Source of the DNA: Akkermansiaceae bacterium
GTDB lineage: Bacteria; Verrucomicrobiota; Verrucomicrobiia; Verrucomicrobiales; Akkermansiaceae
NCBI GenBank assembly: GCA_017857425.1
Contig: JAFMDE010000004.1
Span: forward strand, 1-34,194
Length of the DNA stretch: 34,194 nucleotides
Reading direction: 5' to 3'
Of the stretch, positions 2,336 to 27,995 are shown piece by piece. The notes below the pieces were generated by a model. The model was not told the DNA's origin. It searched no databases and saw only the letters and a list, made by a program, of their open reading frames with translations. The translations under genes were made by a program, and so were the position numbers. How positions within the stretch are numbered: position 1 is the stretch's first letter; each line of letters opens with the position of its first letter.

Positions 2336-2364
2336 AAAAAAAGGCACGGCGAGTGCCGTGCCTT
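2336..2364 (-). terminator. Intrinsic terminator of the HMA selenoprotein gene
   Basis: A perfect 10-bp stem, AAGGCACGGC (2341-2350) with GCCGTGCCTT (2355-2364), encloses a 4-base loop. On the minus strand it is followed by a run of seven T. It begins 26 bases after the second stop codon (2390-2392) of the HMA gene, not after the internal TGA at 2564-2566, so the transcription unit extends to the second stop. It may also act weakly on the plus strand for the HAD gene. Confidence 0.88.
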
Positions 2365-2389: not shown

Positions 2390-2722
2390 CTACTTGGTGA
2401 CTGAGGCGCCGAAGCCGGCATCTTTGACTGCTTTGACCAAGTCCTTATCAGAAACACTGCTTTTGGCGGTGACTACCGCTGAGTCAGGCATGCTTACTGC
2501 GGCTTTAGAAACTCCTTCAACCCCTTCAAGTGCGGACCGCACTTTATTAACGCAACCCACGCCTCAGGTCATGCCTGTGATTTTAAGATTTACCGTTTTT
2601 GTTTCCTCATCTTCGGCTTTGACTTCATGAGGTGTCTTAGTGGGCAGCTCTACTGCTGCTACAGTGCCAATAGGAAGCGCTGCTAGGGCACCGAGTGCCA
2701 TTAGTTTTTGAATAGTTTTCAT
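2390..2722 (-). CDS. Exported HMA-domain protein with in-frame UGA, predicted selenoprotein
   Basis: A MerP/CopZ-like heavy-metal-associated protein, probably periplasmic. From the ATG at 2720-2722 it begins with a basic, hydrophobic signal peptide (MKTIQKLMALGALAALPIG) with a likely cleavage at the VAA site, then a charged linker. The HMA domain reads KITGMT-TGA-GVGCVNKVRSALEGVEGV, with the in-frame TGA (2564-2566) as codon 53 and Cys57. It continues through SKAAVSMPDSAVV to a normal HMA end, VKAVKDAGFGASV, and stops at TAG (2390-2392). The product is 110 residues counting residue 53. HMA domains carry GMTCxxC, and a known variant carries GMTCxxGC, so TGA replaces exactly the first metal-binding cysteine. 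A SECIS-like hairpin follows. TGA is a normal stop in other genes here. A frameshift is excluded because the frame is intact; a Cys-to-stop mutation remains possible. Confidence 0.82.
2528..2544 (-). promoter_or_regulatory. Candidate bacterial SECIS stem-loop
   Basis: On the minus strand the RNA AAGUGC-GGUCC-GCACUU forms a perfect 6-bp stem, with one more possible G-C pair inside the loop. The apical GU lies 26 nt after the UGA. Bacterial SECIS elements have a G at the start of a small apical loop about 16-37 nt after the UGA. The E. coli fdhF element has the similar core GCAGGUCUGC. The hairpin lies wholly within the coding sequence, as bacterial SECIS elements do. Confidence 0.75.
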
Positions 2723-10541: not shown

Positions 10542-10574
10542 GCACACTGGTTAGCTTATTTTCTGTTGTGTGCT
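10541..10574. terminator. Candidate hairpin between convergent yebC-like and cusA genes
   Basis: AGCACAC (10541-10547) and GTGTGCT (10568-10574) are a perfect 7-bp inverted repeat with a 20-base loop, spanning both gene ends. On the plus strand only a short T-rich run (ATTTCTT) follows. It may serve as a shared terminator, but the loop is long. Confidence 0.35.
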
Positions 10575-13500
10575 ATTTCTTGCCACAAACAGAAGATGAC
10601 AGGCACGACAAACATACTGAGTAATACGACGATTACTCCACCGAAGATGGGCACAGCCATGGGCCCCATGATGTCGGCTCCTCGTCCTTTAGAGGTGAGC
10701 ACTGGCAGTAGTGCTAAGATGGTGGTTGCGGAGGTCATCAGGCATGGTCGGCAGCGGCGTTTGCCAGCGAGGATGGTAGTGGCCCTGATTTGCCCGATGG
10801 TTTGGGGGAGGTCTTTTTTGAAGCGTTGGCGGAGGTAGGTGGAGATGACGACACCATCGTCGGTGGCAATGCCGAACAGGGCGATGAAGCCGACCCATAC
10901 CGCGGTGGAAAGGTTGATGGGTTGAATCTTGAAAATGGCACGCAGATTGTGACCGAAGATCTCGATATTCATAAAGCCTGGTTGAGCGTAAAGCCAGAGC
11001 AAGAGGAACCCGCCAGAGAAGGCTACGGCGATGCCGCTGAAAATAATGATGGTGTTGATCACAGAGCGGTTTTGTAGATAGAGGATGAAGAAGATGGCCA
11101 GTAGGGCGAGGGGCATCATGACCATCATGTTTTGATCAAATTCGAGAGCCGACTGATAGTTGCCGGCGAATTCATAACGAGTGCCTCCGCTGCGTTTGAG
11201 CTTGCCTGCCTTTTCCTGTGCTTCGAGGTAGGCCTGGACATCCTCGACCACATCAACTTCTGCGAATCCTGGGTTAGAGCCAAAGGTGACGTAAGCGGTC
11301 AGGAACGTATCCTCGCTTTTAATGACCTGTGGACCTCGCACATACTCGATGTCGACGAGTTGCCCAAGCGGGACTTGTGCACCTTCACGGGTGGTGGTGA
11401 GGATTTTCTTAATCGCTTCAATCGAGTCACGGGCTTCACGAGCGTAGCGGACCTGGACGCCGTAACGTTCCCGTCCTTCGACGGTGGTGGTGACAATTTC
11501 GCCGCCGATTGCGGTTTGGATGGTTTGGTGGATGTCGATGACATTCAGGCCGTAGCGTTTGGCGGCCTCGCGGTCGGGGTGGATTTCGAGGTAGGGTTTG
11601 CCGACGATACGGTCCGCATTGATGCTGTTGATGTCGAGTCCGGGGATATTGCTCTCGCGCATGAGACGCTCAAGTTGAAGGCCGAAGTCCTCGAGGGTCA
11701 ACAGGGTGGGGGCTTTGATTTTGATGCCCATGGGAGCGCGCATGCCGGTACGTAGCATTACGAGGCGGGTCTCGATAGGTTGAAGCTTCGGCGCACCGGT
11801 CACTCCGGGAAGCTCGATGACTTTGCTTATTTCATGCCAGATGTCATCGGCACTTTTGATGTGCGGTCGCCATTGCCTGAAAGGTTTTCCTTTTTTATCT
11901 GGAACAAGTTTGCCCTTGTTATCGTAGATGTAGTCTCCTTGCTCATTGACTTTGAATGTGAGCACACGCCCTTGGCTATCAGCGCGAAATTCGGAGCGGT
12001 AATTGACGATCGTCTCGATCATGGAAATGGGTGCGGGGTCGAGTGCGGATTCTGCACGGCCAATTTTGCCGACGACCTGATAGACCTCGGGGATGGTGGC
12101 GATGGCGGCATCGAGCGTTCGCAGTGAATCAGTGGCTTCATCGATTGACGCGTGTGGGCTGACCGTGGGCATGACGAGGAACGAGCCTTCGTCGAGTGCT
12201 GGCCGGAATTCTTTGCCGAGGCCGGGGAATTTCCGATCGATGTCCTGATAGAGTGAGGTGTTTTTGATGCCCTCGGGTAAGCCGGCGGTGAGTTGTCCAA
12301 AGCCAAGCCAAATACACCCTGCCACGGCGAGCATCATCAGGGGGATACTCAGAAAGATGATTTTGTGATCAAGAATCCAGCTTAGGATGCGGGTGTAGGC
12401 GAGCTCGGCAAACTTGAACGTGAGTAGCAGGCCACCGAGAATGATGATGACAAAGACGAAGTTGGTGAAGGTGGCAGAGTCAAGGCCAAGCGGCATCCAG
12501 TGTTTGGCCAACAGCCAGCCAACGATTAGAGCGGTAACGATGTTGATGCTGAGTCCGCCTATTTTTTGCAGGTGAGGGGGTAGTTTTGCATGGTAGGCAT
12601 TGATGAGAGCGAGGGCAGCTAACACCAGAGCTATAGCGATCGAGAAACCGAATGCGATTCCCGCGCCGATACCTAGAAGTGCGGTGATCAGACCCTTGCG
12701 ACTGAGCATTTTAACGGACGCTTGCGAGGCTTTGTTTTTTTCCGAGGCGAGCCATTTCGGAAAGACCCCTAATAGGAGGTGGGCGATCGGCGGGATGATG
12801 GTCAGGGCGACGATAATGGAGGCGATCAGGGCAAAGGCTATGGTGGAAGCGAGTGGTCGATAAAGCCTGCCGGCTTCGCCGGCCATGGTGAAGACAGGAA
12901 TGAAGCTAACGATGGTGGTCATCACAGAGGTGGTGACGGCACCAGAGACCTCGGTTACAGCTTCGTAGATAATGGCTGCTGAGCTTGTCTTTGAGCTGTT
13001 TTCCCGAGCTTGCTGCAGATGTTTAATGATATTTTCTGTGAGCACGATGCCAACGTCGACCACCGTGCCGATGGCAATAGCGATGCCCGAAAGAGCTACG
13101 ATGTTGGCGTCCACCTTGAATAGCTTCATGGCGATGAAGGTGATCAGCACGGCAAGGGGCAGCATGGCGGAGATCAGGATGCTGCTGCGTAGGTGCAGGA
13201 TCATGATGACAACCACGATAATGGTGACCAAGATCTGTTCGAGGAGTGCGGAGTCGAGCGTGTTGAGCGTCTCGGCGATGAGGGCTGAGCGGTCGTAGAA
13301 CGGCACGATAGTGACCTTGGAAGTGTTCATCCATTCCGGCCAATGGTCGCGCTCATGGGTGTTGGTCCAGGGTAGCCAGGCGTCTTGCTTGAGTGTGGTG
13401 TCTGCGGGTGCTTCGCTGGCAAATGCTGGGCTGATGTTATGATCCGCAGCAAATTTTTCCACAGCGGCTCGATCTGTTTGTTGCCAATCAATGGTCACTT

Positions 13501-14497
13501 TGGTGGGTAGCGCTGCTGAGATTTCCTTGATCTTGGCTTTGGTGTTTTTGATCGTGGCCATCGGGTTGGCGCCATAGCGGGCGACGACAATTCCTCCGGC
13601 AGCGTCGGCTCCATTCACGTCAATGACACCGCGTCTCATACTGGGACCGAGCTGCACGGTGGCGACTTGGGCAACGGTGATCGGCGTGTTGTCACGGACG
13701 GCTACCACGGCATCGCGCAGGTCATCGAGTTCGCGGATGTATCCTGTGCCTCGCAGGATGTATTCCACGCCGTTAATGGCGAGGTTGCGCGCTCCAGTTT
13801 CCATGTTGCTTTTGCGAACGGCATTGGCAACTTCGGCCAGGGTCACATTCCAGGCCTGCAGTTTCATCGGGTCGACCTCGACCTGGTATTGTTTGACGAA
13901 TCCGCCGACCGAGGCGACTTCAGCAACACCATTGGCACCGAGCAGCGAGTAGCGAACATACCAGTCCTGGAGCGAGCGGAGCTCCTCAGGGTTCCATCCT
14001 GGGGCTGAATTACCATCGGGGTCTTGGCCCTCAAGGAAGTATTGATAAATCTGTCCCAGACCGGTGGCATCGGGGCCTAGTGCCGGCATGGCTCCATCTG
14101 GGAGTAAGCCGACGGGCAGGCTGTTGAGTTTTTCTAGAATCCGGCTGCGGCTCCAGTAGTAATCGATATCTTCCTCGAAAATGAGATAAACATAGGAAAA
14201 ACCAAACATGGAGTAGCTGCGGACTTCCTTCACACCGGGGATGCCCAGCAACGAGACGGTAAGCGGGTAGCTTATCTGATCCTCAATATCTTGTGGCGAG
14301 CGTCCCATGTACTCGGTGAAGACGATTTGTTGGTTGTCGCCGAGATCGGGGATGGCATCGACAGCCACGGGGTCACGCGGGAAACTGCCGGTGTCCCAGT
14401 CGAAGGGGGCGACTCGCACGCCCCAACCGATGACAAAGGTGAGCAGAATAAAAACAACTAGTTTTTGATTCAGGCAGAAGTGGATCAGGCGGTGCAT
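10556..14497 (-). CDS. cusA: CusA-type heavy-metal RND efflux pump, enlarged
   Basis: Inner-membrane proton-driven pump of a Cu(I)/Ag(I) CusCBA complex. It has 1313 residues against 1047 in E. coli. CusA features include AVDAIPDLGDNQQIVF near residue 45, the TM4 proton-relay Asp in GTVVDVGIVL (about 481), and the relay methionines in LVMPT (776), SMIET (826) and VMLRTG (914). Three insertions explain the length. One is at about residues 335-393, before TIVPFYDRS. One at about 590-700 contains roughly three or four extra hydrophobic helices. A hydrophilic one is at about 835-875, before RQWRP. It is the last gene of the operon, 21 bases after cusB. The copper/silver preference is inferred from the retained methionines and the cusB metal-binding domains. 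Confidence 0.93.
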   Translation of the reverse strand: MHRLIHFCLNQKLVVFILLTFVIGWGVRVAPFDWDTGSFPRDPVAVDAIPDLGDNQQIVFTEYMGRSPQDIEDQISYPLTVSLLGIPGVKEVRSYSMFGFSYVYLIFEEDIDYYWSRSRILEKLNSLPVGLLPDGAMPALGPDATGLGQIYQYFLEGQDPDGNSAPGWNPEELRSLQDWYVRYSLLGANGVAEVASVGGFVKQYQVEVDPMKLQAWNVTLAEVANAVRKSNMETGARNLAINGVEYILRGTGYIRELDDLRDAVVAVRDNTPITVAQVATVQLGPSMRRGVIDVNGADAAGGIVVARYGANPMATIKNTKAKIKEISAALPTKVTIDWQQTDRAAVEKFAADHNISPAFASEAPADTTLKQDAWLPWTNTHERDHWPEWMNTSKVTIVPFYDRSALIAETLNTLDSALLEQILVTIIVVVIMILHLRSSILISAMLPLAVLITFIAMKLFKVDANIVALSGIAIAIGTVVDVGIVLTENIIKHLQQARENSSKTSSAAIIYEAVTEVSGAVTTSVMTTIVSFIPVFTMAGEAGRLYRPLASTIAFALIASIIVALTIIPPIAHLLLGVFPKWLASEKNKASQASVKMLSRKGLITALLGIGAGIAFGFSIAIALVLAALALINAYHAKLPPHLQKIGGLSINIVTALIVGWLLAKHWMPLGLDSATFTNFVFVIIILGGLLLTFKFAELAYTRILSWILDHKIIFLSIPLMMLAVAGCIWLGFGQLTAGLPEGIKNTSLYQDIDRKFPGLGKEFRPALDEGSFLVMPTVSPHASIDEATDSLRTLDAAIATIPEVYQVVGKIGRAESALDPAPISMIETIVNYRSEFRADSQGRVLTFKVNEQGDYIYDNKGKLVPDKKGKPFRQWRPHIKSADDIWHEISKVIELPGVTGAPKLQPIETRLVMLRTGMRAPMGIKIKAPTLLTLEDFGLQLERLMRESNIPGLDINSINADRIVGKPYLEIHPDREAAKRYGLNVIDIHQTIQTAIGGEIVTTTVEGRERYGVQVRYAREARDSIEAIKKILTTTREGAQVPLGQLVDIEYVRGPQVIKSEDTFLTAYVTFGSNPGFAEVDVVEDVQAYLEAQEKAGKLKRSGGTRYEFAGNYQSALEFDQNMMVMMPLALLAIFFILYLQNRSVINTIIIFSGIAVAFSGGFLLLWLYAQPGFMNIEIFGHNLRAIFKIQPINLSTAVWVGFIALFGIATDDGVVISTYLRQRFKKDLPQTIGQIRATTILAGKRRCRPCLMTSATTILALLPVLTSKGRGADIMGPMAVPIFGGVIVVLLSMFVVPVIFCLWQEIAHNRK

Positions 14498-14518
14498 TGG
14501 GTGATGAGCTTTGCGGGT

Positions 14519-16729
14519 TTAGTCTTTGCTTTCCAGCGACAGGGTGTCGGTAACGTCTCCGCAGCTATACATTCCGCTGCCGAAGTAGGGGTTCTGGACC
14601 TTGGGAATGGGGGAGAGCCAATCGGCACCTTTAGCTCCGTCGGCCATGGGGCAGTGAACGACGTAGAGGTTGCCGAGCTGGTTGATGCCGTGTTTTCTGA
14701 TTAGAGAAATGAGATGTTTTGAAACGGCAGGGAGTTTTTCGCGAAGGGCTTTGATTTCGGTGGTTTGTTCGAGTTGCTGAGTGGCGCTTAGCAGTTTTCC
14801 CTTATTCTCGTCTTCGGGAAGTGTGGCGATGGCCTCGAGCAGGGCTGGGATGGCCTGGCTGGCAGGTTTTGCCTGGTCCTCGGCAAGGGCTTGGGAGATT
14901 TGCAGGTAGGCGGCGGTGGTTTTTTGCAATGGCAGGATCCATGTAGGATCGACTTGGGTGGCTGGGATGGCTTGCCATGGCAGCCCGGTGAAGCGTCCGG
15001 TTTCAGACATTTGGTGGCGGATTTTTCTCAGTGATGCATGATTGGGGGAGGTGATGGCGGCGAGGGTGTTTTCAAGGCGCATGGAAAATTCATTCCAGAG
15101 AGCGAATTCCTTAGGCTGGAGTTGGTCTGTTTTAATGTTGGCGAGAGCGGATTTCATCGAGTTCAGGTGGCTATTGGCCGGCTCGATCTGATCGTCTTGG
15201 ATCGCTTGTTCGAGCTCTCCGAATGCACGCAGCACGGGTGGCCACTGGGCGAGAATTTGTTGCGGGGCATTGATGGCGGATCGTTCTACCAGGCCGGCAT
15301 TAGGATTCATCATCGATGGGCGGGCCTTGATCTGGAGTTCGCTGTCGAGTTTGTAGGCGCCTCGGGTGACGACGAGTTCACCTGCATCGAGGCCGTGATC
15401 GACGATGAAATAGTCACCCGTTTTCGGTCCTAACACAATTTCCCGACCTTCGAAGACGGGCTCGGTTTTTTCGGGGATGCGGACGTAGACGATGGCGCGT
15501 TTGCCAGTGCGGAGCACGGCGGATGCGGGAACGAGTATGGGGTTTTCCGTGGCTTGGACTGAGGGGATGAAGCCGAATTCCTCAGCGGGCACCAGGGCCA
15601 TGCCGCAGATGTCACATTCTCCGGGGCCATCTTTGACAATTTCAGGGTGCATCGGGCTGATCCACTTGCCTGCGAGGTCAGCACTGAGCACTCGTCCGTG
15701 CAGGGCAACGTTTGCTTCGGCGGATGCGTTGGCAAACATGCCAGGTTTGAGCAGAAGGTCTTTATTGTCGACATTGACCCGGACTTTGACGATGCGGCGT
15801 TTTGGGTCGAGTTGAGGGTCGATAAAGGCGATGCGCCCGTAGAAGGTTTTTCCGGGTATGGCTTCGACGGTGAAAGAGACTTTCTGGGCGTAACGCAGCC
15901 ATGGTAGGTCAGATTCGTAGGCCTCCATTTTGAGCCAGACCGAGCTGAGCTTGGCGATGCCAAACAGCGGGTCGCCGGTTTTAAGATACTGGCCTTGTTT
16001 GGCGTTGAGTTTGACAATGATGCCGTCTTGTTGTGCCGTCAGGGTGATTTGATTGCTTGGTTTGCGCTGTGTTTCGATGGCGGCAATCTGTTGCTCGGTG
16101 AGTTCTAATAGGTGAAGTTTTTCGCGTGCGGCGGCGAGTAGGTTGAGGCGGAGACTGCGCACGGCGGGCGATGATGAGCTGCTGACTGATTGAACGGCCT
16201 GGATGAGTTCTTGTTGGGCGACGTAGAGTTCCGGACTGTAGATTTCAGCAATGGCGTCACCTTTACTGACAGTGGTTCCGGTGAAGTCAGCGTAGAGTCG
16301 GTCAAGCCTGCCACTCATGCGGGCGGTGGTGGTGACAATGGTGCGTTCGTCGTAGTCGATTTTGCCAAACAGCTTTACGTTTACCTGTGCTGGAGCGCGA
16401 AGCACTGGGCTAACGCGTAGATCGAGTAGTGCGGCGGCTTGCTCGCTGATGGTGATTTCACGGAGACCACCATCGCCATTTCCAACTTGGAGCGGGATGA
16501 GGTCCATGTTGCAGATCGGGCATAGGCCTGGGTTGGGTTGGCGGATTTGGGGGTGCATGGAGCAGGTCCAGACCTCGGCGGCTGCTGTTGTCAATGATCC
16601 TTGGGCGGCCTCTTTTTTCGAGGGCAGAGCGAACCACCAACCTGCGAAAAAGAAGATCAAGGGGATCAAAATCACAGCTGGTTTTTTAATCAGAAAAGTG
16701 AGCGCTTGGAGTATCTTATTGTTTTTCAT
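14519..16729 (-). CDS. cusB: CusB-type periplasmic adaptor with two heavy-metal-binding motifs and DUF3347
   Basis: Membrane-fusion protein that links CusA to the outer-membrane channel and hands over metal. The 736 residues are far longer than E. coli CusB (about 400). The N-terminus has a hydrophobic anchor (AVILIPLIFFFAGWW), then a metal-binding motif WTCSMHP with CPICNMDL (residues 54-80). The barrel-sandwich and beta-barrel core follow, then a second metal-binding motif SPMHPEI with CDICGMALVP (about 355-380). The C-terminal 120 residues match DUF3347: VVHCPMADGAKGADWLS, NPYFG and MYSCGDV. The two methionine/cysteine-rich motifs may gather copper in the periplasm. It lies 36 bases after cusC. 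The ATG lacks a Shine-Dalgarno. Confidence 0.93.
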   Translation of the reverse strand: MKNNKILQALTFLIKKPAVILIPLIFFFAGWWFALPSKKEAAQGSLTTAAAEVWTCSMHPQIRQPNPGLCPICNMDLIPLQVGNGDGGLREITISEQAAALLDLRVSPVLRAPAQVNVKLFGKIDYDERTIVTTTARMSGRLDRLYADFTGTTVSKGDAIAEIYSPELYVAQQELIQAVQSVSSSSSPAVRSLRLNLLAAAREKLHLLELTEQQIAAIETQRKPSNQITLTAQQDGIIVKLNAKQGQYLKTGDPLFGIAKLSSVWLKMEAYESDLPWLRYAQKVSFTVEAIPGKTFYGRIAFIDPQLDPKRRIVKVRVNVDNKDLLLKPGMFANASAEANVALHGRVLSADLAGKWISPMHPEIVKDGPGECDICGMALVPAEEFGFIPSVQATENPILVPASAVLRTGKRAIVYVRIPEKTEPVFEGREIVLGPKTGDYFIVDHGLDAGELVVTRGAYKLDSELQIKARPSMMNPNAGLVERSAINAPQQILAQWPPVLRAFGELEQAIQDDQIEPANSHLNSMKSALANIKTDQLQPKEFALWNEFSMRLENTLAAITSPNHASLRKIRHQMSETGRFTGLPWQAIPATQVDPTWILPLQKTTAAYLQISQALAEDQAKPASQAIPALLEAIATLPEDENKGKLLSATQQLEQTTEIKALREKLPAVSKHLISLIRKHGINQLGNLYVVHCPMADGAKGADWLSPIPKVQNPYFGSGMYSCGDVTDTLSLESKD

Positions 16730-16765
16730 GGCTGTCTTGGAAATGGATGGTTGGATAGAGTTTTT

Positions 16766-18088
16766 TTAATGAATGGCGGCCGCACTTTTCAGGGAAGCGT
16801 ATGCTTTTCCGAGTGACGCATGATTGCCTTCCTGCTGGAATTGTAGGGTGAGCAGCAGGCGCCAGGTATCGAGTACGTCGACAAAGGATTGTTCGCCGGC
16901 GCTATAGGATTGGAGTGATAATTCGTGAGCTTGGCGGGCATCTGGGAGAAGGCGCTCATCGAACAGCTTGATAATCTTGCGGGAAGCCTCGGCTCGGAAC
17001 CATGCATCCTCGACACGTTGTCTGAGTTCGGCACGTGAATGGGCCACTCCGGCCTGCATTTCTGCGATGCCAGCCTGGGCTTCTCGAATTTTCGCACGGC
17101 GCGGTTTTTGCCAGATGGGTAGAGTAATACCTAGAGTGAACATGGTCTGATCTTCGCCATTGGCTACGGGGGAGAGTCCTGAGTTTGAGACCCAAGCGTG
17201 CTGAGCACCGATGAGGAAATCAGGGTAGGCATCGAGGCGAGCTTTTTGAAGGCGGTGTTCGAATGCGTCGAGGCGATTTTGGTTGGCCTTGATACTTGGG
17301 TGTGAGGATTCAGCTCTGGAGATGAGCTTGCTAAGACTACTCGAGCTGGGAGTTGATGAGCGTTTTGGCAGGGGCAAACTCGATCCAGTTGGGCGATTGA
17401 GCAAGGCGTTCAAGCGGGATTTGTGACTATTGATCTGTTGCTTTGCGGTGATGAGTTGCTGGTCGATTTTACTCATCTCTGTGGCGATTCTTAGCAGGTC
17501 GGCTTGCGTGCCTTGGTTTGCTTTGACACGTGCTTGCACGACTTCCTGAACGGTTTGTAGAATCTCATGATTCTCCCGACTGATGCGTCGGTTCTGATGG
17601 GCGAGGTAGTAATCCCAGTAGGCAAAACGCACACGCTCGGCGATCTGGAGCTTGAGGCTGTTCAGTTCGGAGCGAGCGGCATCGCTTTCTTTTTGGGCGG
17701 TGAGCGCCATGGCCCTGCGTTTGCCAGGGAAGGGGATTTGTTGTTCGAGGCCAGCCATGGTGTCGATTTGACCTGCAGCAGTCTCAGCGAGATTTCCCGC
17801 GCTGATCCGTGCCCGAGGGTCTGGCAGTGAGCCCTCTTGCGCTACCTTTGCTTGAAGACGGTCAATCTTGTGCTGTGCTGCGGTGAGTGACGGATGGTGG
17901 CTGAGGGCTTGAGATACGAGTTGTTCGACATTGGCATCGGCTGGGATGCGGTAGTTGCTCGCTTTGCTTTGCGACTCGGAAAGTTCGTGGGTCAATGAGG
18001 ACAGGTGCTTTGGGGAGTCAGATGTCTGACAACCCGCTAAAAGAGCGACGAGAACAGGGATAAGTCGCATGTATTTTTTGATAGTCAT
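16766..18088 (-). CDS. cusC: CusC-type outer-membrane efflux lipoprotein (TolC family)
   Basis: Outer-membrane channel for the Cus complex. From the ATG at 18086-18088 (440 residues) the N-terminus is a lipoprotein signal with lipobox LLAGC (Cys20). The frame is open further to 18196, but the extra residues precede a signal peptide and are unlikely to be translated. The rest has the two-fold repeated helical hairpins of TolC-like proteins, for example GQIDTMAGLEQQIPFPGKRRAMA, followed later by LGITLPIWQKPRRAKIREA. The IPFPGKR phrase is common in metal-type channels. It precedes cusB by 36 bases and follows the Cys-rich gene by about 190 bases. Confidence 0.9.
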   Translation of the reverse strand: MTIKKYMRLIPVLVALLAGCQTSDSPKHLSSLTHELSESQSKASNYRIPADANVEQLVSQALSHHPSLTAAQHKIDRLQAKVAQEGSLPDPRARISAGNLAETAAGQIDTMAGLEQQIPFPGKRRAMALTAQKESDAARSELNSLKLQIAERVRFAYWDYYLAHQNRRISRENHEILQTVQEVVQARVKANQGTQADLLRIATEMSKIDQQLITAKQQINSHKSRLNALLNRPTGSSLPLPKRSSTPSSSSLSKLISRAESSHPSIKANQNRLDAFEHRLQKARLDAYPDFLIGAQHAWVSNSGLSPVANGEDQTMFTLGITLPIWQKPRRAKIREAQAGIAEMQAGVAHSRAELRQRVEDAWFRAEASRKIIKLFDERLLPDARQAHELSLQSYSAGEQSFVDVLDTWRLLLTLQFQQEGNHASLGKAYASLKSAAAIH

Positions 18089-18249
18089 AAAAGAGGTTGC
18101 TAGAATGTTTTGGTCGCCGCTAAATCTGTTAGATTGATGGGCAGGGCATAGTATAGTTATTGCGTAGTTCAGATAGGGACGTGACGAAGTTGGCAAGCTT
18201 GCCCGGTATCTTGTTCCTTGGGCGATTGAGCAATGCTCACGCCATTCGA

Positions 18250-22253: not shown

Positions 22254-23669
22254 GTGAATATTTTTAAATCTCGTCTTAGCTCTCTTTGTCCGGTCATCGC
22301 TTTTTCATCTGCGGTAATACTTATTTCAACTACTGGGTGTGTCACCCTTCCCAAGGCGCCTAGTGGCCAGGAGCTTCTCAACGCCAGCCTACCGAATTCG
22401 GACCAGGTTAGAGAGCAGTGGGCATATCGATCCAAGAAAGGTGGTGTTGATTCCGCTTGGATCAAGTCCTTCAGAGACCCCGCCCTTGAGTCTTATATTG
22501 GCGAGGTAGTCGCTGGCAACATAGAGCTAGGCGCAGCCCTTCATGCAGTAGAAGCTGCGGCTGGCAGCGCTCGCCAGGCGGGTGCCTTGCTACGGCCTCA
22601 GCTCAATGCGGCCGGTATGTCAAATCATCTTGACCGCTCCGGAGGTGACAGCAGTGACAGCTCTGATCTGAGTGCCCAGCTTTCCTGGGAGCTAGATCTC
22701 TGGGGCAGGGTGCGCGCGGCGCGTGCAGCAGCAGGGGCTAATTACCGTGCTACGGAAGCCGAGTACCAGGACGCCCGCTTATCACTGGCAGCGGTGGCAG
22801 CCAAGGCATGGTATCTGGCCACTGAGACATACCAACAGCTGGAATTCGCCAGAGAGATTGTCAACATTCAGCAAAAGCGTCTTGATCTGGTGACTATTAA
22901 GTTTGAGGAAGGTGAGCTCAGCCCGAAGGAGAAACACCTCGCTGGTGCGGATCTCAACGCAGCCAAGGATCGGCTTCAGCAGGTGTCCCTCGCGCACCGT
23001 AACGCGCTGCGAACGCTGGAAGTCCTCGCCGGTAGATATCCCGCGGCCAAGCAACAGATAGCGCGGCGCTATGTGCCCGTTCCTCCTTCAGTATCTGCCG
23101 GGGTTCCTTCAGCACTCATTGAACGCCGCCCGGATCTGAGGGCCGCCGGTGAGCAGGTTGCGGTCGCCTTTAATCTGGTGACGGAGGCCAAGGCCGCGCG
23201 CCTGCCGCGTATCAGCCTGACGGCTGCTGCGGGACGTTCCAGTAATGACCTTCTTGACTTGATTGACCAGGGCCCGGGTTTCTGGAGCGCGGGCGGGAAT
23301 TTCATCGCGCCTATTTATCAGGGTGGTGCGCTCAAGGAGCAGGTGGTCATCAGAACTGCTGAGCAGAAGGCGGCACTATCCCTCTTCGGCCAGAAGTCAC
23401 TCAACGCCTTCAATGAGGTGGAGACAGCACTCGACGGCGAGGCCATTTTCAGGAATCGGGAGCGTTTCCTCAAGGGGGCTTTGGATGATAACCAGAAGGC
23501 GCTCGATATTGCCCAGAAGCAGTTTGATGCCGGTAAGCTCGACTTGCTCAGTGTGCTCCAGATGCAGGAGCGTGTTATCTCCTCAAAGATCGCCTGGATT
23601 AATATCCGCAGCACACGCCTCGCCCAGAGGATCGAGCTTCACCTCGCCCTTGGGGGTAGCTTTGAATAG
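22254..23669 (+). CDS. Outer-membrane efflux lipoprotein, NodT/OprM-like
   Basis: Outer-membrane channel of a tripartite RND pump. It has 471 residues, starting at a GTG (22254) since no ATG lies nearby. The signal peptide ends in the lipobox STTGC. Two OEP repeats follow, with the conserved ALIERRPDLRAAGEQV and the later FDAGKLDLLSVLQMQERV. The first repeat has SWELDLWGRVRAARAAAGA, typical of NodT-type lipoproteins. It is the first of four genes in line: channel, adaptor, pump and potassium channel. Base composition looks richer in G+C than in flanking genes. Substrate cannot be told. Confidence 0.92.
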   Translation: MNIFKSRLSSLCPVIAFSSAVILISTTGCVTLPKAPSGQELLNASLPNSDQVREQWAYRSKKGGVDSAWIKSFRDPALESYIGEVVAGNIELGAALHAVEAAAGSARQAGALLRPQLNAAGMSNHLDRSGGDSSDSSDLSAQLSWELDLWGRVRAARAAAGANYRATEAEYQDARLSLAAVAAKAWYLATETYQQLEFAREIVNIQQKRLDLVTIKFEEGELSPKEKHLAGADLNAAKDRLQQVSLAHRNALRTLEVLAGRYPAAKQQIARRYVPVPPSVSAGVPSALIERRPDLRAAGEQVAVAFNLVTEAKAARLPRISLTAAAGRSSNDLLDLIDQGPGFWSAGGNFIAPIYQGGALKEQVVIRTAEQKAALSLFGQKSLNAFNEVETALDGEAIFRNRERFLKGALDDNQKALDIAQKQFDAGKLDLLSVLQMQERVISSKIAWINIRSTRLAQRIELHLALGGSFE

Positions 23670-23753
23670 TCACTCATCTTCCGTCCTTGTCCAGTCATCC
23701 CATTATAGTTCATCCATTATCTGTCACTTGCTCTAACAAAGAAACCATTCACT

Positions 23754-24887
23754 ATGAAAAGAACATTCAAGATCCCGCCAGCAGCCACCCAGGTGCTACC
23801 CACCTCACTGAAAGCACTCGCCACATTGAGCGCCATTCTTGCCCCGGCACTGTTCACCGCCTGCGGTGACAAGGAAACTGCTCCGGAAAAAAATTACGTG
23901 CGGCCTGTGAAGGTGGTGGAGATTGATTCCTCCACGATGGAGAGAATCTATGAGTTCCCCGGCCAGATCCAGGCGGGCCAGCAGCTTGACCTCGCTTTTG
24001 AAGTGCCCGGTAAGCTCACCACCATTAATGTGAAGGAGGGTGACTTCCTCAAGAAGGGCGAGCTTGTGGCGACTCTTGATACACGTGACTACCAGTCCAC
24101 GCTCAACTCCGCGAAGGCGACTCTGGAGGAGGCCAAGCTGGAGCGGGACCGTAACCAGAGGCTCTTTGACCAGCAGGCAGGATCCAAGGAGGCGGTGGAG
24201 AAGTCCATCCGCACAGTACAAACCGCGCAGGCGAGTTATGAAAAAGCGAAGAAGGCCTTTGAAGACACCAGTCTGAAAGCTCCCTTCTCAGGGGTGGTGG
24301 CGAAGGTCTTTGTCGATGATTTCCAGAACGTAAGTGCTAACCAAGACATCGTGGTGATGCAGGATACGACGACTTTTGAAGCGGTGATCGATATTCCGGA
24401 GACTCTCTGGGTGCTCGCCAAGCCGGGCTTGAGTAACGAGAAGCGCACCAAGCGCTCCCGTCCGGAGATCCGCCTCACTGCACTTCGCGGGGCGAGCTTC
24501 CCGGCAAAGATTTCCGAGACCTCCATGCTCGCGGACCCGAAGACGCGCACTTTCCAGGTGACGCTCACTTTCTCTCCACCCGCGGATCTCAACATCAGCC
24601 CGGGCATGACGGCGGCTGCGGTTATTCACTGGGCAGGCGAGGCACCGGGTGGGGCAGCCATGTTCACCGTTCCGGTGGGCGCAGTTGGCTTTGATGATGC
24701 GGGCAAGGCCTACATCTGGAAAATCGACGGGGAGAAAATGACTGCCGGCCGCGTGGAAGTCCAGGCGGGTGAGGTGACTGATGGCAGTATCGGTATTTCC
24801 GGTGAACTCACAGTGGGGGATATGCTGGCGGCGTCCGGCATTGCCCAAATACGTGAGGGCATGGTGCTGAAGCGCTGGCAGCCCTAA
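23754..24887 (+). CDS. RND periplasmic adaptor lipoprotein (AcrA-like)
   Basis: Membrane-fusion protein of 377 residues linking the pump and outer-membrane channel. The N-terminus is a lipoprotein signal with a cysteine in ALFTACGDKE. The lipoyl half-motif EVPGKLTTINVKEGDFLKKGELVATLD is followed by a coiled-coil hairpin (NSAKATLEEAKLERD) and the returning half LKAPFSGVVAKVFVDD. The stop codon directly abuts the possible GTG start of the pump. It carries no metal-binding motif like that in cusB, so it is probably a drug or organic-solute adaptor. Confidence 0.93.
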   Translation: MKRTFKIPPAATQVLPTSLKALATLSAILAPALFTACGDKETAPEKNYVRPVKVVEIDSSTMERIYEFPGQIQAGQQLDLAFEVPGKLTTINVKEGDFLKKGELVATLDTRDYQSTLNSAKATLEEAKLERDRNQRLFDQQAGSKEAVEKSIRTVQTAQASYEKAKKAFEDTSLKAPFSGVVAKVFVDDFQNVSANQDIVVMQDTTTFEAVIDIPETLWVLAKPGLSNEKRTKRSRPEIRLTALRGASFPAKISETSMLADPKTRTFQVTLTFSPPADLNISPGMTAAAVIHWAGEAPGGAAMFTVPVGAVGFDDAGKAYIWKIDGEKMTAGRVEVQAGEVTDGSIGISGELTVGDMLAASGIAQIREGMVLKRWQP

Positions 24888-24929
24888 GTGCCCATTGAAG
24901 CCACCTACTCATCCATTATTTCCGTCCCA

Positions 24930-27900
24930 ATGAATATTGCAAAGTTTAGTATCGAGCGAAAGACAATCACCCTGGTGCTGACAGCGGCGCTCGTGCTTGG
25001 AGGTGCCATTGGCTACCAGAACATGAGCCGCCTTGAGGACCCTGAGTTCACCATCAAGGATGCTCTGGTCATCACCCCCTACGCCGGGGCGACTGCCCGT
25101 GAGGTGGAGGAGGAGGTCACTGATGAGATGGAGGTGGCCGTGCAGAAGATGTCCCAGCTGGATGAAATCCAATCCCGCTCTGAGCGTGGTCTGTCCACCC
25201 TGACGGTCACGATGCAGGACAAGTATGACAAGTCCTCGCTACCCCAGATCTGGGACGAGCTGCGCCGCAAGGTCAATGATGCCCAGAAGAATCTGCCACC
25301 CGGTGCGGGCCCGTCGATCGTGGTTGATGACTACGGTGACGTCTACGGGGTCTTCATTGTTTTCTATGGTAAGGACTACAGCTACGCGGAGCTCAAAAAA
25401 GTCACCGACATGCTCCGGCGTGAGCTCTTACTCGTTGAGGATGTCGCCAAGATCGATAGCTTCGGGGAGCGCAGGGAGGCGGTTTACATTGAGCTGGATC
25501 GTGACCGCATCGCCCAGCTCGGGGTGCCTCCGGCGATGATTATCAGGGAACTGCAGTCCAAGAACCTTGTCAGTGACGCGGGCAGGGCCAAGGTGGGTTC
25601 TGAGTTTATTACCCTGAACCCGACCGGGGAATACACCACGGTGGAGGACTTCAACGGCTTACTGCTCAACGCGGATGACAAGCAGTTCTACCTGCGGGAT
25701 GTCGGTAGAGTGGTGCGGGGCTATGTCGACCCTTATGACAGTGGGATTCTTTATGATGGCAAGAATGCCATTGGGCTCGGTATTTCCACGGTGTCAGGGG
25801 GTAATGTGGTGACCATGGGTGAGGCCCTGGAGGCAAGGCTCGCGGAACTTCAGACCGAGATCCCGCTGGGGGTCAAGGTAGGCGTTGTTTCCCTGCAGTC
25901 CGAGGCGGTTAACATCGCGATCAAGGGTTTTGTGGTTAGTTTGTTAGAGGCAGTGGCGATTGTCGTTGTGGTGTTGCTCTTTTTCATGGGCGCGCGCAGT
26001 GGCCTGCTCATTGGTGCGGTGCTCACGATCACCATCATCGGGTCCTTGTTCTTTCTTGAGCGCATGGGCGTGGCCCTTGAACGCATCTCGCTGGGAGCAC
26101 TCATCATCGCGCTCGGCATGCTGGTGGATAATGCCATCGTGGTGGTTGATGGCATTCTGGTCGGGCTCCAAAAAGGCAAGAGTGCCGTGAATGCGGCCAT
26201 TGATGTGGTCAAGCAGTCCGCCATTCCGCTGTTAGGTGCTACTGTTATTGCCATTATGGCTTTCGCCGCGATTGGTACTTCACAGGACTCGACCGGTGAA
26301 TTCTGCCGTTCGCTCTTCCAGGTGATCATGGTTTCGCTACTGCTGAGCTGGGTGACGGCGGTGACACTGACGCCACTGCTCGGGACGATGTTTCTCAAAG
26401 GACCCAAGGCGAAAAATGATGCGAAGAATGATGCAGGAGAGGATGCCAAGGATGAGGGCGAGAAGGATCCATACGATACCGCGTTCTATCGCCGTTACCG
26501 TGGGCTGCTTTCCACCTGTATCCGCTTCCGTTGGATTACAGTTGCTGCGGTGGCTGGGATCTTCATTGCCGCTGTGTTTGGCTTTGGATTTGTGAAGCAG
26601 AGTTTCTTCCCGCCATCGACACGGCCGCAGTTCATGGTCGATCTCTGGCTTCCCCAGGGCACTCACATCAATGAGACCGAGGCTAAGGCCAAGGAGCTCG
26701 AGGCGGGTGTCAGGAAGATGGAGGGCGTTACCCACGTTTCCAGCTTGATTGGCAAAGGTGGATTACGCTTCCTGCTGACTTATTCACCGGAGCGCACGAA
26801 CTCCGCCTACGCGCAGCTCTTGGTGGATGTTGAGGACGCCACCCAAGTGGATAAACTCATCCCGGAGATTGATGCCTACATTAAGAAGAACTTCCCAGCC
26901 ACGCTGGGCTACGGCTACAAGTTTGAGCTCGGTCCCGGCTCGAAGGGCAAAGTGCAGGCGCAATTCATTGGCTCGGATAGTGACGTGCTGCGCAATCTTG
27001 CCAACCAGGCCCGTGACATTATGGAGGCCAACTCCAAGGCCAAAGCGGTGCGGACGGACTGGCGCCAGCGTGCCAAGGTGATCCGGCCCTTGATTATTGA
27101 TGAGCAGGCCAATCTGATGGGTATTGATCGCAAGGAAATTGCCGATGCGGTCAGGCGCGCATTCCAGGGTCAGTCGATCGGGGTTTATCGTGAGGGTGAC
27201 TTGTTATTACCCATGATCATGCGCGCTCCTGAATTTGAGCGGGATAGCATTGACTCACTGCGCAGTATCCAGATCTGGAGCTGGTCTGCCCGCCGCCACA
27301 TTCCGATCATGGAGGTGGTATCCGGCTTTGAGACCAGCTACGAGGATGAGATCATCATTCGCAAGGACCGGAAACGTACGATTACCACCTTCTGTGACCC
27401 GGCATCGGGAACCGCGAATGAGTTGCTCGCGGAGCTCATGCCCAAGATTGAGGAGATCGAGCTGCCTGATGGATATAAATTACACTGGGCTGGTGAGTAT
27501 GAGGACTCGGGCGAGGCCCAGGGATCTCTGATGGCAAGTATTCCGGTGTTTATCGGCTTAATGATTCTCGCTACGATTTGCCTGTTTAATAATTTGCGCC
27601 AGCCTTTGGTGATATGGCTCTGCGTGCCACTGGCACTCATTGGTGTTTCCGCTGGTCTGCTTTCCACCGGCCAGCCATTCGGCTTCATGGCGCTACTTGG
27701 TTTCCTGAGTCTTTCCGGAATGCTTATCAAGAATGCCATTGTGCTTATTGATGAGATCAATGCCCAACTTGCCACAGGAGCCGGCCCGATGGAGGCTATC
27801 CTTGCCTCGGGCGCGAGCAGATTGCGTCCCGTTGCTATGGCGGCTTCCACCACAGCGCTCGGTATGCTGCCACTGTTCTTTGACGCGTTCTTTGTCTCCA

Positions 27901-27995
27901 TGGCAGTGACTATCGTCTTTGGTCTGGTCTGTGCCACGGTATTGACGATGATTGTGGTGCCGGTCTTTTACGCGATCGTTTACCGGGTGAAGTAA
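24930..27995 (+). CDS. RND efflux pump (AcrB-like)
   Basis: Proton-driven inner-membrane efflux pump. From the ATG at 24930 (MNIAKFSIERKT) it has 1021 residues; the open frame reaches back to a GTG at 24888. It has the expected twelve-helix layout with two large periplasmic loops. The TM4 relay region reads GMLVDNAIVVV: the first of the two AcrB aspartates is kept and the second is Asn, a variant seen in other RND groups. The TM10 lysine lies in GMLIKNAIVLIDE. A hydrophilic Asp/Glu/Lys-rich insertion (about residues 490-520) precedes TM7. It follows the adaptor with almost no gap and is followed by a channel gene 10 bases later. Confidence 0.94.
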   Translation: MNIAKFSIERKTITLVLTAALVLGGAIGYQNMSRLEDPEFTIKDALVITPYAGATAREVEEEVTDEMEVAVQKMSQLDEIQSRSERGLSTLTVTMQDKYDKSSLPQIWDELRRKVNDAQKNLPPGAGPSIVVDDYGDVYGVFIVFYGKDYSYAELKKVTDMLRRELLLVEDVAKIDSFGERREAVYIELDRDRIAQLGVPPAMIIRELQSKNLVSDAGRAKVGSEFITLNPTGEYTTVEDFNGLLLNADDKQFYLRDVGRVVRGYVDPYDSGILYDGKNAIGLGISTVSGGNVVTMGEALEARLAELQTEIPLGVKVGVVSLQSEAVNIAIKGFVVSLLEAVAIVVVVLLFFMGARSGLLIGAVLTITIIGSLFFLERMGVALERISLGALIIALGMLVDNAIVVVDGILVGLQKGKSAVNAAIDVVKQSAIPLLGATVIAIMAFAAIGTSQDSTGEFCRSLFQVIMVSLLLSWVTAVTLTPLLGTMFLKGPKAKNDAKNDAGEDAKDEGEKDPYDTAFYRRYRGLLSTCIRFRWITVAAVAGIFIAAVFGFGFVKQSFFPPSTRPQFMVDLWLPQGTHINETEAKAKELEAGVRKMEGVTHVSSLIGKGGLRFLLTYSPERTNSAYAQLLVDVEDATQVDKLIPEIDAYIKKNFPATLGYGYKFELGPGSKGKVQAQFIGSDSDVLRNLANQARDIMEANSKAKAVRTDWRQRAKVIRPLIIDEQANLMGIDRKEIADAVRRAFQGQSIGVYREGDLLLPMIMRAPEFERDSIDSLRSIQIWSWSARRHIPIMEVVSGFETSYEDEIIIRKDRKRTITTFCDPASGTANELLAELMPKIEEIELPDGYKLHWAGEYEDSGEAQGSLMASIPVFIGLMILATICLFNNLRQPLVIWLCVPLALIGVSAGLLSTGQPFGFMALLGFLSLSGMLIKNAIVLIDEINAQLATGAGPMEAILASGASRLRPVAMAASTTALGMLPLFFDAFFVSMAVTIVFGLVCATVLTMIVVPVFYAIVYRVK

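What the first reader, a model, noticed from the sequence alone, without database searches (positions are those of the whole stretch)
2390..2722. HMA-domain protein with an in-frame UGA in place of the first metal-binding cysteine: likely exported selenoprotein
The frame reads KITGMT-TGA-GVGCVNKV and then a full normal HMA domain to a TAG and terminator. UGA is an ordinary stop elsewhere (for example the RapA-like gene and menA), so this is not a changed genetic code. The position matches Cys in GMTCxxGC-type HMA domains, giving a UxxxC site. A signal peptide places a selenol metal- or redox-site outside the cytoplasm, which would be unusual. I cannot confirm from memory that this family is described as a selenoprotein family.
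Basis: partly seen in the sequence, partly recalled or inferred. Interest (0 to 1): 0.92.

Follow-up and report, generated by a model that had tools for sequence, protein, structure and literature searches.

The report
Exported selenium-containing metal-binding protein family
The window encodes a small exported protein in which the first of two metal-gripping cysteines is replaced by the rare amino acid selenocysteine; the same unusual site, with its RNA recoding signal, recurs in about 70 other genomes of marine and related bacteria, so it is real and looks like an uncatalogued selenoprotein family.

Summary
Confirmed, on the minus strand. Window 2722-2390 encodes a 110-residue protein: signal peptide, linker, HMA domain (Pfam 40.8 bits). 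In-frame UGA is codon 53, in GMT-U-GVG-C. It is no sequencing error or pseudogene. Close homologues in 17 related genomes carry UGA at this codon. A 7-bp hairpin follows at fixed distance (loop 26 nt after UGA): 135/140 pairs formed against 86 (sd 4) after synonymous recoding, with covariation. The own genome has selA, selB and a UGA-containing selD; tRNA-Sec is missing from this incomplete draft but present in congeners. A DNA-pattern scan of 84,980 genomes found 78 loci; 73 encode this same exported protein (Verrucomicrobiota, Planctomycetota, Poribacteria), always UxxxC, many as lipoproteins. One Cys (CxxxC) homologue was found. HMA domains of solved structures have CxxC; the extra residue is a hallmark. 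Sec-HMA proteins are already known (UxxU family NF041115; MerP in ocean data), so this is a new variant: exported, stand-alone, UxxxC, below the cut-off of every NCBIfam model hit. Function is inferred: most likely soft-metal (Hg(II)/Cu(I)) capture outside the cytoplasm; a redox role is the main rival. No conserved operon supports either.

The parts
2390..2722 (-). Selenoprotein gene: exported HMA-domain protein, 110 aa, ATG to TAG, UGA read as Sec at codon 53
   Evidence: translation; Pfam; homologues
2654..2722 (-). Predicted signal peptide, about residues 1-23 (MKTIQK / hydrophobic core / VAA)
   Evidence: direct reading; an export-signal-like start was recognised in 76 of 78 homologous domains, 32 with a lipobox (heuristic)
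2411..2587 (-). HMA domain, residues 46-104
   Evidence: Pfam PF00403 40.8 bits; AF2 core pLDDT about 91 with the expected strand-helix-strand-strand-helix-strand order; Foldseek to MerP 1osd and HMA7 3dxs
2564..2566 (-). UGA codon, Sec53
   Evidence: conserved in all near homologues
2552..2554 (-). Codon of Cys57, second ligand of the UxxxC site
   Evidence: invariant in alignments A2 and A3
2528..2544 (-). Bacterial SECIS hairpin AAGUGCG-GUC-CGCACUU, loop 26 nt after the UGA
   Evidence: (135/140 pairs against 86.2, sd 4.2, after synonymous recoding)
2337..2363 (-). Likely intrinsic terminator of the gene (the convergent plus-strand gene ends on its other side)
   Evidence: sequence: AAGGCACGGCACTCGCCGTGCC followed by a T run

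Best explanation
This is a genuine selenoprotein. SelB, bound to the hairpin just after the UGA, delivers Sec-tRNA-Sec, and the ribosome inserts selenocysteine at position 53 (strongly supported by sequence, about 0.97). The protein is exported by the Sec pathway and works outside the cytoplasm, as a soluble form here and as a lipoprotein in many relatives (sequence-supported, about 0.9). There the HMA fold presents a selenolate and a thiolate four residues apart in a loop one residue longer than in ordinary CxxC domains. The most likely function is high-affinity capture of a soft metal ion, Hg(II) or Cu(I)/Ag(I), for sequestration or hand-off (inferred, about 0.6).
For: UGA at the ligand position in all close homologues; 73 further loci in Verrucomicrobiota, Planctomycetota and Poribacteria. 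Downstream substitutions fall mostly at third codon positions. SECIS hairpin: 135/140 pairs against at most 102 in 5,000 synonymous recodings; inner pair AU/GC/GU covaries; outer pair, not part of the search pattern, 59/68 paired against at most 51 in shuffles. selA 505 bits, selB 328 bits, selD 368 bits with its own UGA; the selD UGA is followed by a similar hairpin with a GUU triloop. tRNA-Sec in congeners by ARAGORN. The UGA homologue co-occurs with selA (Fisher p = 2.3e-4), and 7 of 8 carriers tested in three phyla have selA. Metal-site reading: HMA family match and fold, both ligand positions invariant, Sec-HMA metal-binding family NF041115 as nearest NCBIfam hit.
Against: No direct evidence of selenium in the protein. 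tRNA-Sec is not found in this draft genome. No conserved mer, cop or other metal gene neighbour. The CusA-like pump 8 kb away is near the gene only in the closest relative among those checked. Most Sec residues in proteins serve redox chemistry.
Confidence: 0.6

Rival explanations
1. It is a selenoprotein, but the U-xxx-C pair is a redox couple: a selenenylsulfide-forming thiol oxidoreductase or peroxidase on an HMA scaffold, as Sec/Cys pairs are in thioredoxin-fold selenoproteins.
For: Most catalogued bacterial selenoproteins are redox proteins (PMC13188914, PMC1088965). Sec and Cys are both invariant, and no metal genes are linked.
Against: The fold and family are those of metal-binding domains, with no redox enzyme acting through this domain among the hits; the GM motif of metal-binding loops is kept; no partner reductase is conserved nearby beyond the genus.
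Confidence: 0.3
2. The gene is a pseudogene or the UGA a sequencing error; translation stops at codon 52 and leaves little more than a signal peptide.
For: A single in-frame stop; the host genome is a draft in which tRNA-Sec was not found.
Against: The same UGA in 17 related genomes and 73 further loci, protein-like evolution downstream, a conserved hairpin, Sec machinery present.
Confidence: 0.01
3. UGA is decoded as another amino acid (Trp or Cys) by a changed code or suppressor tRNA.
For: Only the open frame itself.
Against: UGA ends 5 of 23 major ORFs in the window; the aligned residue in the Cys homologue and in ordinary HMA domains is Cys; a SECIS hairpin follows.
Confidence: 0.01
4. It is a periplasmic metallochaperone feeding the CusCBA-like heavy-metal pump encoded in the same window, analogous in role to CusF.
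For: CusA/CzcA-type RND (687 bits, cut-off 701), CusB-like adaptor and TolC-like protein lie at 10556-18196 on the same strand.
Against: About 8 kb away with unrelated genes between; not near the gene in G001, G008 or other divergent relatives checked; the RND genes beside two planctomycete copies score best with multidrug-type models.
Confidence: 0.06

Closest known systems
NCBIfam NF041115 UxxU_metal_bind, metal-binding (seleno)protein (listed as UxxU, two Sec, in PMC13188914)
   Same: HMA-like domain with Sec at the metal-ligand positions; the best NCBIfam hit of the window protein
   Different: UxxU with two Sec against UxxxC with one Sec and one extra loop residue; score 56 bits against a cut-off of 95
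'Mercuric transport protein MerP' selenoprotein listed from Global Ocean Sampling (PMC2398784: 2 sequences, 0 Cys homologues, no motif given)
   Same: MerP-type protein with Sec, marine origin; could be the same group
   Different: Only a table line, no sequence available here to compare; not found by the words searched in the 2022 or 2026 catalogues
MerP (TIGR02052; PDB 1afi, 1osd)
   Same: Exported single HMA domain; among the nearest solved folds
   Different: CxxC, encoded in mer operons; score 42.5 bits against a cut-off of 92.55; no mer genes near
MerT/CopZ fusion-like heavy metal transport selenoprotein (NF045683) and Sec-containing cation-transporting P-type ATPase (UxxC)
   Same: Sec in HMA-related or heavy-metal transport proteins
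   Different: Membrane transporters or fusions; this protein is a stand-alone exported domain (table of PMC13188914)

Membership tests
Bacterial selenoprotein | In-frame UGA aligned with Cys or UGA in homologues | tested here: met
   UGA in all near homologues; Cys in L101 with the same CxxxC spacing
Bacterial selenoprotein | SECIS hairpin directly downstream of the UGA | tested here: met
Bacterial selenoprotein | selA, selB, selD in the genome | tested here: met
Bacterial selenoprotein | tRNA-Sec in the genome | tested here: inconclusive
   Absent from the 92.6% complete draft; only the last ~19 nt at the syntenic place; intact in congeners G003 and G008
Bacterial selenoprotein | Selenium in the product | not testable with these tools
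   needs 75Se labelling or mass spectrometry
HMA domain (Pfam PF00403) | Score over gathering cut-off, and fold | tested here: met
   40.8 bits against 24.8; model and Foldseek
HMA domain (Pfam PF00403) | Canonical CxxC metal site | tested here: not met
   UxxxC: Sec replaces the first Cys and one residue is added
NF041115 UxxU metal-binding selenoprotein | Score over curated cut-off of 95 bits | tested here: not met
   56.3 bits; relatives 37-46 bits
NF041115 UxxU metal-binding selenoprotein | Two Sec spaced UxxU | tested here: not met
   one Sec per domain, UxxxC, in the window protein and in all domains collected
MerP (TIGR02052) | Score over curated cut-off of 92.55 bits | tested here: not met
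   42.5 bits
MerP (TIGR02052) | Exported single HMA domain | tested here: met
MerP (TIGR02052) | Part of a mer operon | tested here: not met
   no mer genes among recurrent neighbours or annotated window neighbours
MerP (TIGR02052) | Binds Hg(II) | not testable with these tools
   needs a binding assay

The most novel reading that the evidence does not exclude
An uncatalogued, widespread family of exported Sec-containing HMA proteins in which a selenolate-thiolate pair with a new UxxxC spacing forms a dedicated extracytoplasmic trap for a soft metal, evolved once in a shared ancestor or spread between Verrucomicrobiota, Planctomycetota and Poribacteria, and almost always kept as Sec rather than Cys.
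Probability: 0.5. Interest if true: 0.72.

Novelty: new variant of a known kind. Interest (0 to 1): 0.62.

Why it matters
Selenium as a metal ligand in metallochaperone domains is little studied. Here the family keeps Sec in every close relative, and a Cys form with the same spacing was seen only once, so Sec itself seems to be required. The protein is small, exported, apparently monocistronic and present in a cultured strain (Rubritalea profundi SAORIC-165, locus L148, with selA), so metal affinity and phenotype can be tested directly. Standard gene finders stop at the UGA, so a family with members in more than 70 genomes is likely mis-annotated as a short signal peptide or missed (inference).

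Tried and rejected
Plus-strand translation of the given coordinates: not coding. Rfam scan of the window and of the gene gave no meaningful hit. Single-sequence folding of 46 nt was not significant (z -0.65); the signal came only from comparison. An alignment search of named genomes failed for lack of conserved stretches and was replaced by a DNA pattern, whose five off-family hits (L136, L140, L144, L171, L206) are taken as chance. The phylum-wide HMM search beyond the order gave almost only CxxC domains, mostly in long frames such as P-type ATPases. Neighbour clustering gave no shared metal gene. CusA linkage was tested and is not conserved. Pseudogene, sequencing error and changed code were rejected. 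The 2007 Olavius paper and the 2025 Haft paper were not held.

Full report
Observation. On the minus strand, window 2722-2390 reads as a 110-codon frame from ATG to TAG with a single in-frame TGA at codon 53 (window 2566-2564). Residues 46-104 match the Pfam HMA domain at 40.8 bits. The start has a classical signal peptide (MKTIQK, hydrophobic core, VAA). A hairpin followed by a T run closes the gene. UGA is an ordinary stop elsewhere in the window: 5 of 23 major ORFs.

Recurrence. A read-through search of 98 related genomes found homologues carrying one in-frame TGA at the same codon in 17 genomes of the same genus, family and order. In the 20 such domains collected for the site is G[ML]xUxxxC. 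Between the window gene and its congeners, changes downstream of the UGA are concentrated at third codon positions (for example 11/7/32 by position against L024), so the downstream half is translated.

Recoding signal. Each domain has the hairpin AAGUGC[GA]-G[UG]Y-YGCACUU (the outermost pair is open in five) with its loop 26 nt after the UGA. Over 20 domains 135 of 140 stem pairs form; recoding the same amino acids with synonymous codons gives 86.2, sd 4.2, never above 102 in 5,000 trials. The innermost pair switches between A-U, G-C and G-U. Among 68 distinct rows from the genome scan, the outermost pair, which was not part of the search pattern, is paired in 59 against a maximum of 51 in shuffles, and the triloop is GUC or GGC in 66 of 68. 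The genome's own selD contains an in-frame UGA, followed by a similar hairpin with a GUU triloop. A single-sequence fold of the window alone was not significant, so the claim rests on comparison.

Machinery. The genome has selA (504.6 bits), selB (328.3) and selD (368.2), all above curated cut-offs. tRNA-Sec was not found in this 92.6% complete draft. The syntenic place near the start of contig C121 holds only its last ~19 nt, while congeners have an intact tRNA-Sec with anticodon UCA. Among 98 relatives the UGA homologue co-occurs with selA (15/17 against 32/81; Fisher p = 2.3e-4; 16/17 if tRNA-Sec also counts; related genomes are not independent, so the p-value is indicative). Of eight carriers from three phyla, seven have selA.

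Extent. A DNA pattern joining the UGA, the second Cys codon and the hairpin was run over 84,980 genomes. Of 78 loci, 73 (78 domains) encode an HMA-type protein with U-xxx-C, nearly all with an export signal. They are Akkermansiaceae, Rubritaleaceae and other Verrucomicrobiota, Planctomycetota and Candidatus Poribacteria, nearly all MAGs plus one cultured strain, Rubritalea profundi SAORIC-165 (L148). About 32 of 76 with a recognisable start have a lipobox (heuristic). A tree groups the Planctomycetota rows on one side of a well-supported branch and places Poribacteria inside the verrucomicrobial side, which may reflect transfer; the alignment is short and does not settle it. Because the pattern demanded UGA and the hairpin, it says nothing of Cys forms; HMM searches of the phylum found one CxxxC homologue with a signal peptide (L101, GMSCAVGCVGKV), and otherwise CxxC domains.

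Fold and site. The alignment-based model has a confident HMA core (pLDDT about 91) and resembles MerP and copper-ATPase domains. HMM alignment against solved structures shows one residue fewer between the two ligands in the HMA domains displayed. Thus the site is UxxxC where the standard is CxxC: the first ligand is Sec and the loop has one extra residue. The model was computed with Cys in place of Sec, so it says nothing about metal geometry.

Function. No neighbour is shared beyond close relatives. In the genus, an HI0933-type flavoprotein lies upstream on the same strand; planctomycete copies have other neighbours. A CusCBA-like metal efflux set lies 8 kb away in the window but is not near the gene in divergent relatives. 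Function therefore rests on the family: an exported single HMA domain whose ligand pair is selenolate plus thiolate. Selenolates bind Hg(II) and Cu(I) very tightly (general chemical knowledge, not tested here). I consider metal capture most likely and redox chemistry the main rival.

Comparison with what is known. NCBIfam holds NF041115 (UxxU) and a MerT/CopZ selenoprotein fusion; neither reaches its cut-off here (relatives). The 2026 catalogue (PMC13188914) lists the UxxU family, a mercuric transport protein of MerT type, a P-type ATPase with UxxC and others; searches of its text for PF00403, UxxxC, HMA, Verrucomicrobi and Planctomycet returned nothing. The 2008 ocean survey lists a 'Mercuric transport protein MerP' selenoprotein family with 2 sequences and no motif (PMC2398784), which may be an early sighting of this group. 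Only openly licensed papers could be searched, and two key papers were not held. Hence: new variant of a known kind.

Noticed in passing
L233 (own genome, contig C121) positions 113-131: Only the 3' end (~19 nt) of tRNA-Sec, with unrelated sequence upstream, at the place where congener G003 has an intact tRNA-Sec: an attachment-site remnant of an integrated element, or a contig artefact.
   Followed up: partly
L018 (own genome, contig C23) position 1531: selD is itself a UGA-containing selenoprotein gene (LASCAG-U-ASKL), with a SECIS-like hairpin CGCAG-GUU-CUGCG.
   Followed up: partly
L049/L160 and L147: Proteins with two tandem HMA domains, each with its own UGA and hairpin, so two Sec per protein.
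   Followed up: no
window 10556-18196, minus strand: CusA/CzcA-like RND pump with an unusually long 1313-aa permease, CusB-like adaptor with an extra C-terminal domain, and TolC-like protein.
   Followed up: partly
window 22254-27995, plus strand: A second RND tripartite efflux set, closest to multidrug-type models in NCBIfam.
   Followed up: no
G009 contig C52: selA matches in two separate frames, suggesting a frameshift or assembly error in that close relative.
   Followed up: no
L202: A contig labelled Akkermansia muciniphila carries a protein nearly identical to that of a Pedosphaera MAG (L168): probably a mislabelled MAG.
   Followed up: no
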